64,000 nucleotides of DNA from Clavibacter michiganensis. GTDB lineage: Bacteria > Actinomycetota > Actinomycetes > Actinomycetales > Microbacteriaceae. The notes beneath the pieces were generated by a model that did not search any database, was not told the DNA's origin, and saw only the letters and a list, made by a program, of their open reading frames with translations. Shown piece by piece: positions 26,989 to 62,677 of the stretch (the first letter of the stretch is position 1; each line of letters starts with the position of its first letter). The DNA is taken from contig NZ_CP080437.1 in the NCBI RefSeq assembly GCF_021216655.1, positions 620,001 through 684,000 on the forward strand. The letters run 5' to 3'. Position numbers and translations under genes: made by a program.

Positions 26989-27047
26989 CGGTCCGCGGGT
27001 CCTGAGCCGGTCCTGCGGCTGACCTGCGTCGCCGGGGGTCCGCGCTG

Positions 27048-27082
27048 CCGCTGAGTCGGTGCCGCCGCTGAGTCGGTGCCGC
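27048..27082. repeat. Short 17-bp tandem duplication
   Basis: The unit CCGCTGAGTCGGTGCCG occurs at 27048-27064 and again directly at 27065-27081, with a degenerate third start (CGCGGCTGA) after it. It sits between the nei stop and the shared terminator. No function is evident. Confidence 0.6.
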
Positions 27083-27105
27083 GGCTGACACTGTGCGCGA
27101 AGACG

Positions 27106-30800: not shown

Positions 30801-33244
30801 GCCGCGACGGACCAGACCGGCGATCCGGTGAGCGCGCCGCCGACGCGGTCGGCGCCGACGATCGCGACGAGGAGGGCCGCGAGGCACGCGGGGAGCAGGA
30901 TCGTCGCGAGCAGCGCTCGTCGCCGGACGCCCGGACGCCCGGGGAGCGCACCGGCCACCGAGGCCGCCAGCCCGCTGGTGAGCAGGACGAGCACGATGGG
31001 ATCGCCGGCCGAGTCAAGCGCGCTCGACAGGGGCGCGGATCCGATGACTCGTGCAGCCGTGAGCGACGGCGCGAGGGCGGCGACCGCGGCGAGGCCGGCG
31101 AGGGCGGCGCCGGCGGTGGCGAGGCGCGCGGTGCCCTCCGAGCGCGCGGTCCGGGATCCGGCGACGAGGAGGAGCACGACGGCCGGAGCGACCACCCACC
31201 ATGTGCTCGTGCTCGCCCAGGACGCGGCCCACGCGAGGGCGCCCGCCGCGAGCGACAGCGCCACGAGCGGGGCGGCGGGGACGACGGCGGGGCCGGGGGC
31301 GCGACGCGCGGAGACCCGCCAGGCCAGAGCACCCGCGGAGGCGGCGAGGTACGCGCCGGCCACGACCGCGACGGGACCGAGCGCGGGGATCGCGGCGAGC
31401 ACGACGGCGGCCCCGGTCCAGGCGAGGAGGCTCCTGCCGGCCCGCACGCGGCGGCCGAGGAGCGCGGCGGCCGCCGCGAGGATCCAGACGAGGACGAGTC
31501 CGACGGCCGCCGCGCGGACGTCTCCTGGCAGTTCGGCGACGCCGCTCGTCCGGCCGAGGAGGACCACCGCGTCGTCGAGGGCTCCGTGGTCCCAGGCGGG
31601 CAGGCCGACGAGCAGCACGGCCGTGATCCCGCCGATGCCTGCGACCGCGGCGGGCAACCCGGCCAGGACGGTGACGACCAGGGCGGCGACGGCGGCGACC
31701 CGGGCCGTCGCGGCGACGACGGGGTCGTGAAGGCGGCGAGCGGCCACGTCCAGCGCGGCCGCGACGACCGCGGCCGCCACGAGCTGCATGCAGAACGTGA
31801 GCAGAGCGGGTCCGCCCATGAGGGCGATGACCGGCACGGCGGCCGATGCTCCGACTCCCGCGACGGCGGCGGCGAGGACGCGCAGAGGATCAGCCGATGT
31901 CGGCGCGGGGTCGGTCGCGTCGTCAGGAGCCGCGACCAGCTCCACCGATGCCTCGGCGGATGGTGGCACGTCGTCACCGGTCAGGCGCGGATCGGCGTCC
32001 CCGTCCGTGACGCGGCCGAGGAGCTCGGCGCGGAAGGCGGGCCGGGTGAGCGCCCAGGCGTGCGCGCCGCTGGCGACGGCCGCGACGAGGAGGGGGAGAG
32101 CCGGGACCGCGTCGCGTGCAGCGGCGCTGGCGGCTCCCGCGACGACGGCGGCGGTCGCGGTCGCGACGCCCACGACCCGGAGCACGCGACGCTCGAGCGC
32201 GTCCGGGAGGGCGGCCGCGCGCGACCGGGGCGCGGCGTGGACGAGGGCGACGGCCGAGGCGGCTGCCAGCGCGAGCGCGACGCGGGTGCCGGCGTCGGCT
32301 GTCGGCACGGCGCCGACCAGGAGGCCGGCGGCGACCGTCAGCCCCGCCCAGCCGGCGATGCCCGGCGCGCGGATGCGGAGCAGGGGCGCGAGCACGAGGA
32401 GCGACGCCGACACGACGAGCGTCCCGACGCCGAAGTGGACGAACGGGTCGTTCGACGCGGCTCCGGCCAGGTCGTAGGACCGCACGGCCCAGACATCGAG
32501 GTGCAGCAGCACGATCCCGACCACGCCCACGGCCTCCGCGGTGCCGGGCAGTCGCCGCCGGGCGAGGACCGCCGCCGCCGCGAGCGCGGCCACCGTGACG
32601 GCCGCGGTGATCGCCGCCCGGACGACCAGCCCGTAGGTCACGAACGCGTAGACCACGTAGAACACCGCCGCCACCGAGAGCAGCACGACGCCGATGGCGA
32701 GCAGCACTGCCGGGACGCTGATGCGACGCCGGGGTGCCGTGGGCGCTGCGGAGACAGGGGCGTGGACCTGGACCGGCGTCCGCTGCAGCCGTCGCGCGTC
32801 TGCTTCGGGAGCGGGGCCGGTCGGCGCGAGGATCGCGGGAGCGGTGTCCGACGACGCCCCGGCGGCGGGCAGCGCCGCTGCCCGCCGCGGATCGGGGATC
32901 GCGGTCGCGGAGGGCTCTGAAACGCGGGTCGCGGAGGGCTCAGGGACGCGGGCCGCGGCGGACGCGACGACCACGGCTTGACGGCGACGCACCGCCTCCT
33001 GGCTCCAGCGCCGCATGGCACCGACGAGGCGCTCGCGTTCCGCGATCGCCTCGACGACCCGGTGCGATGCCTCGAGCACGGCGGCGGCCCCCGGCGCGCG
33101 GACGTCCAGACCGCAGCGCCCGCAGACGAGCGCGCCCAGGGGCGCGAGGCAGGCCGGGCAGAGATCCGTGCGCAGGAGGTCGTCCGGCGACGCGACCCAC
33201 GGTTGCGCCGGGAACCGCGATCCACGTGCGTCGTCCTCGACCAT
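27809..33244 (-). CDS. Giant polytopic membrane protein with N-terminal zinc ribbon (SCO7613 C-terminal-like)
   Basis: An 1811-residue protein that resembles the actinobacterial SCO7613 C-terminal-domain membrane proteins; no function is established. Order of parts: a zinc ribbon with Cys29, Cys32, Cys41 and Cys44, a helix to about 90, a Pro/Ser/Ala-rich linker with octad repeats (PSATRV/EPSATAI) to about 170, then some 1600 residues made almost wholly of hydrophobic helices. I estimate several dozen, broken by short Arg/Asp/Pro loops. The C-terminus ends in a basic cytoplasmic-type tail. Start ATG at 33244 is the first in frame. It is monocistronic. The frame is intact throughout, so it is not a fusion artefact. 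Confidence 0.85.
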   Translation of the reverse strand: MVEDDARGSRFPAQPWVASPDDLLRTDLCPACLAPLGALVCGRCGLDVRAPGAAAVLEASHRVVEAIAERERLVGAMRRWSQEAVRRRQAVVVASAAARVPEPSATRVSEPSATAIPDPRRAAALPAAGASSDTAPAILAPTGPAPEADARRLQRTPVQVHAPVSAAPTAPRRRISVPAVLLAIGVVLLSVAAVFYVVYAFVTYGLVVRAAITAAVTVAALAAAAVLARRRLPGTAEAVGVVGIVLLHLDVWAVRSYDLAGAASNDPFVHFGVGTLVVSASLLVLAPLLRIRAPGIAGWAGLTVAAGLLVGAVPTADAGTRVALALAAASAVALVHAAPRSRAAALPDALERRVLRVVGVATATAAVVAGAASAAARDAVPALPLLVAAVASGAHAWALTRPAFRAELLGRVTDGDADPRLTGDDVPPSAEASVELVAAPDDATDPAPTSADPLRVLAAAVAGVGASAAVPVIALMGGPALLTFCMQLVAAAVVAAALDVAARRLHDPVVAATARVAAVAALVVTVLAGLPAAVAGIGGITAVLLVGLPAWDHGALDDAVVLLGRTSGVAELPGDVRAAAVGLVLVWILAAAAALLGRRVRAGRSLLAWTGAAVVLAAIPALGPVAVVAGAYLAASAGALAWRVSARRAPGPAVVPAAPLVALSLAAGALAWAASWASTSTWWVVAPAVVLLLVAGSRTARSEGTARLATAGAALAGLAAVAALAPSLTAARVIGSAPLSSALDSAGDPIVLVLLTSGLAASVAGALPGRPGVRRRALLATILLPACLAALLVAIVGADRVGGALTGSPVWSVAAQAVLVTGLVAWTVGGARCVPLPGRAPRADAQDDVPRAPGSAALRRWRLTTAALVAPSLLLAVLTAGPLVDRGATPHGVMPAAVALVVAVAALLAYRHTSPALRVALDAGTTAVAAGAMLVAVSFDPTREARELLWIPLLTLAGTASTLSYAHDGLLLSGSARRAWGWTAFATGIAASWSRLLAGGVASPEAYWLPIAGVLLLIAGLMHRAAVLVDRDGDATGPTVGPRVRRGVTALTLAGILTAVLPLVAAGRPGDVLRPYLLTGICAALALGGAAVLRHAAFPVRPLLRAVVIGAGLGILAVGGVRALRLSAGSVARETAVDVQLTVTAVLLVGLGALVLRGARSAEDARLAGSAWVGTSVLVAVVMAASVGSGEGVVRPLVVSVALVAGAGILLVLRSAHRDVLAASAAVALVGAVVVALLAWRGGYTALDPAALVVPAIVAVLVAAVGAADRLRNPAPATVPGRAPGAVAGAVRHAADTATGALVAGTVAVGVASDGPGLPVALLLSAVGVLIASSAPGSHARRHAGWIALALGTAALWVALGRGRIDAVEPYVLPPAGVLLAVAALLQRGLPRGRRHGATQVPARTSGAAPVVLGALLLAALPTAVASWTGTPVRALVLGGAAGAVLLLAATALRGTDAASPTRPLLLATAVASGLVVPLVGFGRAVSALVANDPPTFARIDLWTLSAAVVLILAVGLLPPRAEDLPLRDPAVAVPASGQVGNASDTWTPGNASGGARTATDTLLRAAPRVVGLVALIGAGSAGAAGILVAHAERMDGVGLRAALLVSVLAALHVVSSPSGLTTTGAGTDEAGQRAASHPSGDRVLALAGLVVGGLVAAILVVAGAADPVETVTVPIAVALLVVGARRLIRDATAGSTQHLSPGLLVLLVPPLLADLGPSPAWRIVGLGVLALATLLTGARLRLRAPFLIGAGVLLVHAVAQLWPWIREASTTVPWWAWAGIGGVVLIAVAARYERRIRDVKGVAARVSALR

Positions 33245-33814: not shown

Positions 33815-35269
33815 GTGAAGACCACGGTCGAAAAGCTGAGCCCCACGCGCGTCAAGCTCGCGATCTCTGCCACCCCCGAAGACCTGAAGCCGCACATCGA
33901 CCACGCATACGGCCACATCGCCGAGCAGGTCGCCATCCCCGGCTTCCGCAAGGGCAAGGTGCCGCCGCCCATCATCGACCAGCGCGTCGGCCGCGAGGCC
34001 GTGCTGGAGCACGCCGTCAACGACGGCATGGACGGCTTCTACCAGGCCGCCGTCAAGGAGACGGACATCCGTCCCCTCGGCCGCCCCGAGGCCGACGTCA
34101 AGGAGTGGCCCGGCAAGGACCTCACCGGCGACCTCCTCCTCGAGATCGAGGTCGACGTCCGCCCCGAGTTCGACCTGCCCGCGTACGAGGGCCTCGAGCT
34201 CACCGTGGACTCCGTCGAGGTCACCGACGACGAGGTCGCGACCGAGCTCGACAGCCTGCGCAGCCGCTTCGGCACGCTGATCACGGTCGACCGCCCCGCG
34301 AAGACGGGCGACTTCGTCCAGATCGACCTCACCGCCACCATCGGCGGCAACGCCGTCGACACCGCGAGCGGCATCTCCTACGAGCTCGGCTCCGGCGACC
34401 TCATCGACGGCATCGACGAGGCCCTCGAGTCCCTCACCGCCGGTGAGAGCACCACCTTCGAGTCGAAGCTGCTCGGCGGCGACAACGAGGGCGAGACGGC
34501 CGAGATCGCCGTCACCGTCCAGTCCGTCAAGGAGCGTGAGCTGCCCGAGGCCGACGACGACTTCGCGCAGATCGCCAGCGAGTTCGACACCATCGACGAG
34601 CTGCGCGCGGACCTCAAGGTCCAGGTCGGCAAGTCCAAGGTCTTCGGCCAGGTCACCCAGGCCCGCGACCAGATCGTCGACAAGCTCCTCGAGGGCGTCG
34701 AGATCCCCGTCCCCGAGAAGCTCGTCGAGGACGAGGTGCAGCGCCACCTCGAGAACGAGAACCGCCTCGAGGACGACGTCCACCGCGCCGAGGTCAAGGA
34801 GTCCAGCGAGAAGGCGTTCCGCCAGCAGCTGCTCCTCGACGTCATCGCGGAGAAGGAGGAGCTGAAGGTCAGCCAGGACGAGCTGACCCAGTACCTCATC
34901 CAGGGCGCGCAGCAGTACAACATGGAGCCGAACGAGTTCGTCCAGGTGCTGCAGCAGAACAACCAGATCCCCGCCATGGTCGGCGAGGTCGCGCGCAACA
35001 AGGCCCTCGCGGTCGTGCTCGACAAGGCGAAGGTCGTGGACGCCGACGGCAAGGTCGTCGACGTGACCGAGTTCACGAACCCCGTCGTGCGCGACGCGGA
35101 CGCGGTGTCCGAGGAGCCGGCCGACGCGGACGCCGAGGCCGTCGTCGCCGACGCCCCCGCCGAGGAGGCCGCAGAGGCCCCCGCCGCGGAGGAGGCCCCG
35201 GCCGAGAAGCCGAAGAAGAAGGCGCCCGCGAAGAAGAAGGCCTCCGAGAAGGCCGCCGACTCCGAGTAG
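33815..35269 (+). CDS. tig: Trigger factor (ribosome-associated chaperone)
   Basis: A peptidyl-prolyl isomerase and chaperone that binds nascent chains at the ribosome exit. The 484 residues show the N-terminal ribosome-binding domain with the signature GFRKGKVPP at about 43-51, then the FKBP-type PPIase domain ([11 protein letters not shown] to about 240). A helical C-terminal substrate cradle runs to about 420, followed by an Ala/Glu-rich tail ending in a lysine-rich stretch ([16 protein letters not shown]) that may contact RNA or the ribosome. The GTG start has a CAGGAGA ribosome-binding site 8-9 nt upstream. It heads the tig-clpP1-clpP2 region but has its own terminator. Confidence 0.97.
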
Positions 35270-35302
35270 TCGCCACCGCCGCTCGTCTCGACGGGCGGTG
35301 AC

Positions 35303-35340
35303 GCGAGGGCCCGGGGAGCTGATGCTCCCCGGGCCCTCGC
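35303..35340 (+). terminator. tig terminator
   Basis: Perfect 17-bp inverted repeat GCGAGGGCCCGGGGAGC (35303-35319) and GCTCCCCGGGCCCTCGC (35324-35340) with a TGAT loop, ending 7 bp before the tandem repeat at 35347. Confidence 0.8.
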
Positions 35341-35346
35341 GCGTCC

Positions 35347-35412
35347 GGCGGCTGCGCTCTCCGCCCGCGGCGGCTGCGCTCTCCGCCCGCGGCGGCTGCG
35401 CTCTCCGCCCGC
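35347..35412. repeat. Three perfect 22-bp tandem repeats upstream of clpP1P2
   Basis: The 22-bp unit begins GGCGGCTGCGCTCTC and ends CGCCCGC. Three identical copies lie at 35347-35368, 35369-35390 and 35391-35412. Identity across all copies suggests recent expansion, so copy number may vary between strains. The array sits between the tig terminator and the clpP1 promoter. Each unit junction gives CGC-N5-GCG, the core of a ClgR operator. Confidence 0.95.
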
Positions 35413-35419
35413 GGCGAAC
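35406..35419 (-). promoter_or_regulatory. Candidate ClgR operator upstream of clpP1P2
   Basis: Read on the minus strand, this is GTTCGC-CGCGG-GCG, a full match to the GTTCGC-N5-GCG motif reported for the actinobacterial Clp regulator ClgR. It ends 27 bp before the predicted clpP1 -10 hexamer, just upstream of where a -35 would lie. That is a sensible place for an activator, and clpP1P2 is a known ClgR target in other actinobacteria. Binding here is inferred. Confidence 0.6.
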
Positions 35420-35446
35420 ACGGGCGTAGGCGCGGATGCGCTCCGA

Positions 35447-35452
35447 TAGATT
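35447..35452 (+). promoter_or_regulatory. clpP1P2 -10 hexamer
   Basis: TAGATT at 35447-35452 matches the hexamer used by other genes in the window and would start a transcript near 35459, giving clpP1 a leader of about 30 nt with a GGGAG ribosome-binding site. No consensus -35 is evident, consistent with activator dependence. Confidence 0.5.
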
Positions 35453-35489
35453 CGTGACTCGAAGCGACGAATGAATGGGAGCTCGAACA

Positions 35490-36077
35490 ATGGCCGAACC
35501 GACACTGGTACCCGGTGTTTTTGACCGACTGCTGAAGGACCGCATCATCTGGCTCGGATCCGAGGTCCGCGACGACAACGCGAACGAGATCTGCGCGAAG
35601 ATCCTGCTGCTGGCGGCGGAGGATTCCGAGAAGGACATCTTCCTGTACATCAACTCGCCCGGCGGTTCCATCACCGCGGGAATGGCCATCTACGACACCA
35701 TGCAGTTCGTCCCCAACGACATCGTGACCGTCGGGATCGGCATGGCCGCCTCCATGGGACAGCTGCTCCTCACGAGCGGCACCAAGGGCAAGCGCTACAT
35801 CACGCCGAACGCGCGCGTGCTGCTGCACCAGCCCCACGGCGGCTTCGGCGGCACGTCGAGCGACATCCAGACGCAGGCCCAGCTCATCCTCTCGATGAAG
35901 CAGCGCCTCGCCGAGATCACCGCGGGCCAGACGGGCAAGACGGCCGAGCAGATCAACGAGGACGGCGACCGCGACCGCTGGTTCACCGCCCAGGAGGCGC
36001 TCGAGTACGGCTTCGTCGACCACATCCGAGAGTCCGCCACCGACGTCGTCGGCGGCGGCGGCACCGAGACCTCCTAG
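35490..36077 (+). CDS. clpP1: ATP-dependent Clp protease proteolytic subunit 1
   Basis: A serine protease subunit of the Clp degradation machine. In actinobacteria ClpP1 and ClpP2 form a mixed 14-mer served by ClpX or ClpC. It has 195 residues with an intact triad: Ser88 in GMAASMGQ, His113 in LLHQPHGG and Asp162 in GDRDRWF. The ATG at 35490 is preferred to one five codons upstream because GGGAG lies 8-9 nt before it and MAEPTLVP fits the family. clpP2 follows after 36 bp. Predicted control by ClgR is described in the operator entry. Confidence 0.96.
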
Positions 36078-36113: not shown

Positions 36114-36794
36114 ATGGAACTCCCCACCTTCGGCGGCGCCCGTGGCGCCGGCTCCACCGCCACGAGCCCGTCGTCGCGGTACATCCTCCCCAGCTTCGAG
36201 GAGCGCACGGCCTACGGCTACAAGCGCCAGGACCCGTACGCCAAGCTCTTCGAGGACCGCATCATCTTCCTCGGCGTGCAGGTCGACGACGCGTCCGCGG
36301 ACGACGTCATGGCCCAGCTGCTCGTGCTCGAGTCGATGGACCCGGACCGCGACATCGTCATGTACATCAACTCGCCCGGCGGCTCGTTCACGGCCATGAC
36401 GGCGATCTACGACACGATGCAGTACGTCTCCCCGCAGATCCAGACGGTCTGCCTCGGCCAGGCGGCATCTGCCGCCGCCGTTCTGCTCGCCGGCGGCGCC
36501 CCGGGCAAGCGCCTGGCGCTCCCGAACGCGCGCGTGCTCATCCATCAGCCCGCCACGGGCGAGTCGAGCGGCGGCCAGGCGTCCGACATCGAGATCCAGG
36601 CCGCGGAGATCATGCGCATGCGCTCCTGGCTCGAGGACACGCTCGCGAAGCACACCAACCGCGACCGCGACCAGATCAACCGCGACATCGAGCGGGACAA
36701 GATCCTGGGTGCGGACGAGGCGCTCGAGTACGGCCTCATCGACCAGGTGCTCACTTCGCGCAAGAACCTGACGGCGGCGATCCCCGCCCGCTAG
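36114..36794 (+). CDS. clpP2: ATP-dependent Clp protease proteolytic subunit 2
   Basis: The partner subunit of ClpP1 in the mixed Clp peptidase. The 226 residues include an N-terminal extension of about 40 residues (Gly/Ser/Thr-rich, then [20 protein letters not shown]), usual for ClpP2. The triad is intact: Ser119 in GQAASAAA, His144 in LIHQPATGE and Asp195 in ERDKIL. The Gln-Ala-Ala-Ser motif in place of Met-Ala-Ala-Ser marks it as the second paralogue. It ends at a strong bidirectional hairpin. clpX is separated from it by an opposing gene. Confidence 0.96.
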
Positions 36795-62183: not shown

Positions 62184-62677
62184 GCGCCGACGGCCGCCCG
62201 GCCCGCACCAGGCGACCCCGACCGCCCCGCACGACGGTCGAGATCCTCGGATCCATCGTCATGGGCTTCCAGGTCATCGTCGTGTTCCTCGCGAGCCTGG
62301 TCGCCTTCGGCCTCGAAGCGCTGCCGGCGCTGCCCGCGCTCGGCGGCGGTGCGCTCCTCGTGCTCGCCATGCTCGCCGTCGTCGGCGCCCTGCGCACCCC
62401 GCTCGGCATCCGCGCCGGCTGGGTCGTGCAGGTGCTCGTCGTCCTCACCGGCTTCGTGTTGCCCGCCATGTTCGCCGTCGGCGGCTTCTTCCTGCTGCTG
62501 TGGATCTACGCCATGGTCCAGGGCGCCCGGATCGACCGCGAGAAGGCGGCGGCCCGCGGCGCGTGGGAGCAGGCCATGCTCGACGAGCAGGCCGCGGCGG
62601 GCGACGCTCCGGCCCCGGGCGACGACCGCCCCACCGACCACCGACCGACCACCGAGCCGCCGGCTCCCACCCCGTAG
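62180..62677 (+). CDS. DUF4233 small membrane protein
   Basis: A 165-residue membrane protein of the actinobacterial DUF4233 family, which sits between folC and ndk in many members of the phylum; its role is unknown. A basic Pro/Arg-rich start (1-20) is followed by four hydrophobic helices at about 22-42, 46-66, 74-96 and 98-115. A cytoplasmic-type tail then ends in a disordered Pro/Asp/Thr-rich segment. Its start overlaps the folC stop by 4 bp. Confidence 0.85.
   Translation: MSADGRPARTRRPRPPRTTVEILGSIVMGFQVIVVFLASLVAFGLEALPALPALGGGALLVLAMLAVVGALRTPLGIRAGWVVQVLVVLTGFVLPAMFAVGGFFLLLWIYAMVQGARIDREKAAARGAWEQAMLDEQAAAGDAPAPGDDRPTDHRPTTEPPAPTP

What the first reader, a model, noticed from the sequence alone, without database searches (positions are those of the whole stretch)
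35347..35452. Tandem-repeat array that rebuilds ClgR operator cores in front of the clpP1P2 promoter
Three perfect 22-bp repeats (35347-35412) run straight into a full match to the actinobacterial ClgR motif GTTCGC-N5-GCG (minus strand, 35406-35419), 27 bp upstream of a TAGATT -10 hexamer (35447-35452). The end of the last repeat supplies half of the operator. Each earlier repeat junction gives CGC-N5-GCG but with GCT where the full site has AAC. Strains with more or fewer copies could therefore present different numbers of weak ClgR sites at the same spacing, making this a possible repeat-tuned promoter for the Clp protease. The motif is established for ClgR; the array's role is inference.
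Basis: partly seen in the sequence, partly recalled or inferred. Interest (0 to 1): 0.78.

Follow-up and report, generated by a model that had tools for sequence, protein, structure and literature searches.

The report
Protease-gene control site with duplicated stubs
In front of the Clp protease genes of Clavibacter bacteria, a stretch of about 22 bases that ends in one conserved control site is repeated zero to six extra times depending on the species; the control site is likely bound by the regulator ClgR, whereas the extra copies lack its most conserved bases and are predicted to do little.

Summary
In detail: three perfect 22-bp units (35347-35412) run into a ClgR-type site 27 bp before a TAGATT -10. 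The genus is Clavibacter; clgR is present. The proximal site is a well-supported operator: all 144 clpP1 promoters examined from 63 other genera of the family carry it 33-34 nt before the -10, a matrix built from those sites ranks it first of 127,964 window positions, and the same operator precedes clpC in 18 of 18 Clavibacter genomes. Copy number varies: 0 to 6 upstream copies in 18 species (one cut by a contig end), at least 10 changes on a poorly resolved tree.

That the upstream copies are weak ClgR sites is not supported: 0 of 31 keep AAC, those in the window score about 30 bits below the operator, and cores vary about as much as linkers (p=0.53). I read them as operator stubs left by repeat slippage.

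New lead: 7 of 63 other genera carry a second same-strand ClgR-type site 21, 31-32 or 42 bp upstream, i.e. whole helical turns; two of these also have one at clpC. Extra operators are a theme of this promoter, though Clavibacter's stubs probably are not functional ones. No binding was tested.

The parts
33815..35269 (+). tig, trigger factor (upstream gene)
   Evidence: TIGR00115 344.7 bits; Pfam Trigger_N and Trigger_C
35302..35341 (+). hairpin after tig, predicted terminator: 18-bp stem with 4-nt loop
   Evidence: fold of 35300-35350: -47.3 kcal/mol, z -6.74; terminator role inferred
35346..35416 (+). tandem array, period 22, 3.2 copies; perfect units 35347-35368, 35369-35390, 35391-35412
35362..35372 (+). 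upstream stub 1: CGCCCGCGGCG followed by GCT
   Evidence: matrix score of the 19-mer around it -7.9 bits
35384..35394 (+). upstream stub 2: CGCCCGCGGCG followed by GCT
   Evidence: matrix score of the 19-mer around it -7.9 bits
35402..35420 (+). proximal ClgR-type operator, centre 35411
   Evidence: 21.75 bits, first of 127,964 positions; same place in 144 of 144 family promoters; binding by ClgR inferred
35447..35452 (+). -10 hexamer TAGATT, predicted
   Evidence: TAGATT in 110 of 144 family promoters
35490..36077 (+). clpP1
   Evidence: Pfam CLP_protease 244 bits; ORF
36114..36794 (+). clpP2
   Evidence: Pfam CLP_protease 250 bits; ORF

Best explanation
A single conserved operator at 35402-35420, likely bound by ClgR and predicted to switch on clpP1P2, ends a 22-bp tandem array whose upstream copies are operator stubs that are likely close to inert. 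The operator is centred 36 bp before the first base of the -10, which would put it near -48 from the predicted start, in a promoter where I see no -35 hexamer; this fits an activator-dependent promoter (inferred). In the four single-copy species the stretch from the end of the tig hairpin to the operator core is 20-23 bp, and it begins and ends with short GGCG-containing repeats (GCGGCG on both sides in G013), the right-hand one being the inner half of the operator. Slippage or unequal exchange between such repeats would copy the whole spacer as one unit and always leave the AAC end of the operator with the last copy only (inferred). That accounts for spacers of about 22, 44, 66, 88-99 and 154 bp and for the lack of AAC in every upstream core counted. 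Selection would keep the proximal operator and the -10, while array length drifts quickly between species (inferred).
For: Operator at fixed spacing in 144 of 144 family clpP1 promoters, no miss; first of 127,964 window positions; identical operator at clpC in 18 of 18 Clavibacter genomes; best + strand matrix match ends in GCGAACA in 60 of 60 family clpC stretches. clgR present. Proximal core CGCCCGCGGCGAACACGG with the -10 at one distance in 18 of 18 genomes, upstream cores 0 to 6; at least 10 changes of copy number on the tree. 0 of 31 upstream cores followed by AAC; stub score -7.9 bits, reached or passed by 378 of 127,964 positions; core differences 6 of 341, linker differences 5 of 190, p=0.53.
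Against: Core differences are slightly rarer than linker differences and the test has little power, so weak selection on the stubs cannot be ruled out. No array reaches the clpC operator in 18 of 18 genomes, so something at clpP1 favours the array. Other genera hold full second sites at whole helical turns, and 22 bp is near two turns. Arrays in other genera end at the same base of the operator, and several share GGCGGCYGTGC there, which slippage alone does not explain.
Confidence: 0.62

Rival explanations
1. The stubs are weak ClgR sites and copy number tunes the promoter: extra dimers on nearly the same helical face would raise local ClgR or add contacts with RNA polymerase.
For: Unit length 22-23 bp, near two turns. 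Seven of 63 other genera have a second same-strand site at 21, 31, 31, 31, 31, 32 and 42 bp, in two of them also at clpC. The Clavibacter proximal site (21.75 bits) is below the family median (26.3), and genera with second sites also have weaker proximal sites (p=0.026, exploratory).
Against: 0 of 31 stubs keep AAC; -7.9 bits; no significant constraint on cores over linkers; four of 18 species do without any upstream copy.
Confidence: 0.22
2. The array works as RNA or as a spacer: extra hairpins that stop read-through from tig or keep the promoter away from it.
For: Each unit can pair GGCGG with CCGCC; the array lies between the tig hairpin and the promoter.
Against: The array folds no better than shuffles (z -1.06; 26 of 200 shuffles as good), while the tig hairpin next to it is already very strong (z -6.74). 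Four of 18 species have no upstream copy.
Confidence: 0.08
3. The array is a dispersed or mobile repeat that happened to land here.
For: Other genera have arrays at the same place.
Against: With up to 3 mismatches the pattern matched in 9 of 18 Clavibacter genomes, and each of the 20 places listed lies beside clpP1 by its coordinates. The pattern cannot see strongly diverged units, so the other 9 genomes are not fully tested.
Confidence: 0.02

Closest known systems
ClgR-controlled clpP1P2 and clpC promoters of actinobacteria
   Same: clgR beside cinA, a site like the published ones upstream of both clpP1 and clpC. Published consensus WNNWMGCYNNNRGCGWWS (PMC2905415, passage) and TNCGCT-N3-GGCGNAA (PMC9004370, passage); by my reading the window site departs from the first at one of its defined positions.
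   Different: Left half differs family-wide (TCTGCC rather than the published left half); a variable tandem array of operator stubs is attached; ClgR binding is untested here.
Variable-number tandem repeats (VNTR) of Clavibacter michiganensis
   Same: Tandem units of 20 bp or more that vary in number. PMC3691591 (passages) used eight such loci.
   Different: The paper says all its tested loci lie in putative coding regions; this array is between genes. Variation here is between species; strains of one species were not compared.
Class III CRP-type promoters with tandem activator sites in helical phase (recalled; a search listing was seen, not read)
   Same: Two activator sites on one face of the helix, like the second ClgR-type sites in seven other genera.
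   Different: Clavibacter has only stubs upstream; activation from two ClgR sites is untested.

Membership tests
ClgR-controlled promoter | clgR in the genome | tested here: met
   102-aa HTH protein beside cinA; ClgR structures 5woq E 2.2e-22 and 3f51 E 3.1e-15
ClgR-controlled promoter | ClgR-type operator at conserved distance from the -10 of clpP1 | tested here: met
   144 of 144 family promoters; 18 of 18 Clavibacter
ClgR-controlled promoter | same operator at clpC | tested here: met
   18 of 18 Clavibacter; 60 of 60 family stretches
ClgR-controlled promoter | ClgR binds and activates | not testable with these tools
   needs footprint and reporter
Array copies as ClgR operators | operator bases including AAC | tested here: not met
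   0 of 31 upstream cores; -7.9 bits
Array copies as ClgR operators | constraint on cores over linkers | tested here: inconclusive
   6 of 341 against 5 of 190, p=0.53; 15 of 385 against 10 of 223, p=0.83 with four extra leftmost pieces; low power
VNTR | copy number differs between genomes | tested here: met
   0 to 6 upstream copies in 18 species
VNTR | copy number differs between strains of one species | not tested
   one genome per species is held
Dispersed or mobile repeat | copies at many loci | tested here: not met
   20 listed places in 9 of 18 genomes, each beside clpP1; diverged units would be missed

The most novel reading that the evidence does not exclude
The clpP1P2 promoter of Microbacteriaceae is a place where ClgR operators are added again and again upstream of a fixed one, in whole helical turns (21, 31-32, 42 bp), making up for weak proximal operators; the Clavibacter array is this process running by tandem duplication, with 0 to 6 partial copies setting how strongly each species makes its Clp protease.
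Probability: 0.2. Interest if true: 0.62.

Novelty: new variant of a known kind. Interest (0 to 1): 0.42.

Why it matters
It fixes the likely ClgR operator of a whole bacterial family base by base and shows it at both clpP1P2 and clpC. It separates the part of the promoter that selection keeps from a fast-changing repeat beside it. The second sites in helical register in other genera are a natural series for testing how an activator gains sites in evolution. If array length did matter, it would be a simple length dial on a central protease.

Tried and rejected
Motif count alone: GTTCGC-N5-GCG has 149 matches in the genome; replaced by position and a matrix. Dispersed repeat. In some searches, units of other genera matched beside clpP1 in G113, G149, G085 and G188, with further matches elsewhere about as frequent as in the reversed-pattern control. 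RNA structure of the array. Partial cores in the 144 promoters: 19 loci against a shuffled mean of 8.7 and a maximum of 17 in 30 shuffles, only modest. First clgR and cinA readings used wrong frames and found nothing (and the second protein); the right clgR frame is L146:3360-3668; cinA rests. The first tree had a badly placed outgroup; rebuilt without it, again 10 changes. Plasmid search: 3 records, none covering 80% of the query. Paper searches for earlier reports: ClgR with Clavibacter 1 unrelated paper; ClgR with tandem repeat and promoter 3 unrelated; ClgR with Microbacteriaceae none; a wider search listed 15 of 1,320, none with the word ClgR. The library holds open-licence papers only.

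Full report
What is there. The window is G000:C1:620001-684000 of a 3.38-Mb genome in a genus of 18 held species. Six records found by the proximal unit are named Clavibacter, and their contig lengths equal those of contigs of G004, G005, G006, G012, G013 and G016. Gene order is tig, a strong hairpin (35302-35341), the array, the operator, the -10, clpP1, clpP2, and further on clpX. TRF gives the array as 35346-35416, period 22, 3.2 copies, 100% match.

The operator. I took clpP1 upstream DNA of 144 of the 194 genomes outside Clavibacter that searched, namely those whose coordinates it listed, from 63 of 77 such genera. In all 144 a GCGAA lies 33 (107) or 34 (37) nt before a TAnnnT hexamer, TAGATT in 110. 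GCGAA and TAnnnT were required by the search, so those letters are conserved by construction; that each locus had such a pair at 33-34 nt, although 32 to 35 was allowed, is a result. The family consensus is near TCTGCC-NAN-GGCGAACA. A genus-weighted matrix of these sites, holding no Clavibacter sequence, gives the window operator 21.75 bits, first of 127,964 positions; the next, 19.6 bits at 62469 on the minus strand, was not followed.

Second target and regulator. GCCNNNGGCGAACA has 10 matches in the genome: one is this operator, one begins one base before the clpC operator, whose start codon lies 93 bp on; the other eight were only looked at in their surroundings. The clpC operator is identical in 18 of 18 Clavibacter genomes. 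For 60 of the 194 family genomes I fetched the clpC upstream stretch (L277 only 119 bp). The best + strand match of the clpP1-trained matrix scores 5.9 to 26.1 bits and ends in GCGAACA in 60 of 60. In 59 of 60 a GCGAAC lies 32-34 nt before a -10-like hexamer; L305 failed the -10 rule. clgR stands beside cinA at C1:1282359-1282667, 102 aa, and matches ClgR structures 5woq and 3f51. That ClgR binds these sites here is inferred from this and from published work in other actinobacteria (PMC2905415, PMC9004370; passages seen).

The array in 18 species. Each of 18 Clavibacter genomes has CGCCCGCGGCGAACACGG with the -10 at one distance. Upstream cores with at most one mismatch, in unit register, number 0 in G009, G010, G012, G013; 1 in G002, G003, G005, G011, G015; 2 in G000, G006, G007, G008; 3 in G001, G004, G014, G017; 6 in G016. 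G004 is cut by its contig end, so its 3 is a lower bound. Dropped before the count: one core-like match each in G010 and G013, 79-80 bp upstream, beyond the hairpin. The hairpin-to-core distance is 20-23, 44-45, 66, 88-99 or 154 bp in 17 genomes, so it is the whole spacer that is copied. At least 10 changes of number are needed on a tree of 17 species (G004 left out), which is poorly resolved. At clpC, TRF finds short imperfect repeats (periods 6-17) in 3 of 18 upstream stretches; none reaches the operator core.

Are the stubs ClgR sites? None of the 31 upstream cores is followed by AAC: GCT 18, GCC 8, GGT 3, GCG 2. In the window each scores -7.9 bits, reached or passed by 378 of 127,964 positions. 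Between adjacent units, cores differ at 6 of 341 positions and linkers at 5 of 190, p=0.53; an earlier count with four extra leftmost pieces gave 15 of 385 against 10 of 223, p=0.83. So constraint on the cores is not visible, with low power. All of this is by sequence only.

Second sites in other genera. With the matrix at 4 bits or more, searched up to 170 bp upstream, the best same-strand site per genus lies at 21, 31, 31, 31, 31, 32 and 42 bp in 7 of 63 genera (g16 has one member at 32 and two at 42). A looser pattern finds 18 of 144 loci in 10 genera, against a mean of 1.6 and a maximum of 6 loci in 100 shuffles. For the 7 genera the phase at 10.5 bp per turn has R=0.976, reached by 0 of 20,000 random sets drawn from 19-60 bp. 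Against this reading: thresholds were set after a first look; genera may share the site by descent; same-strand sites also lie at 88 bp (g45) and 111 bp (g16); opposite-strand sites lie at 22, 40 and 44 bp and further out. At clpC, 4 of 59 loci in 2 of 47 genera have a same-strand second site at 31-32 bp, three of the four only under a looser rule; both genera are among the seven. Genera with second sites have weaker proximal sites (p=0.026) and none of 7 has the GCCCACGGC centre, against 24 of 56 others (p=0.038); both tests are exploratory.

Other arrays. TRF finds arrays near the operator in 6 of 144 loci. In four (L076, L127, L133, L215; genera g66, g69, g30, g71) the array ends inside the operator, in three of them exactly at GCG before AAC. 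Periods are 48, 38, 39 and 24 bp, so they share no one helical register. The other two (L080, L103) end 6 and 10 bp before GCGAA.

Verdict. Operator and promoter are well supported; the array is a genuine, fast-changing tandem repeat anchored in the operator; tuning by weak sites is possible but has no sequence support. I put most weight on stubs left by repeat slippage.

Noticed in passing
clpP1 promoters of genera g5, g16, g41, g46, g55, g73, g76 (e.g. L108, L119, L132, L139, L145, L170, L205): A second same-strand ClgR-type site 21, 31-32 or 42 bp upstream of the proximal one, whole helical turns.
   Followed up: partly
L256, L257, L258, L261 (clpC promoters of g55 and g76): A second same-strand site 31-32 bp upstream of the clpC operator, in two genera that also have one at clpP1.
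   Followed up: partly
L076, L137, L177, L117, L133, L127: Arrays or single units upstream of the clpP1 operator in which a core is followed by ACTGTGC or GGCTGTGC and, in several, by an inverted ClgR-like half GTTCGCC; the likeness between genera is unexplained.
   Followed up: partly
window 35453-35489: The predicted leader between the -10 and clpP1 is nearly identical in 18 Clavibacter genomes, more than a ribosome-binding site would need.
   Followed up: no
window 27047-27096 and 32903-32958: Two further short tandem arrays, periods 17 and 24.
   Followed up: no
window 62469-62487, minus strand: Second-best match to the operator matrix in the window, 19.6 bits; gene context not examined.
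   Followed up: no
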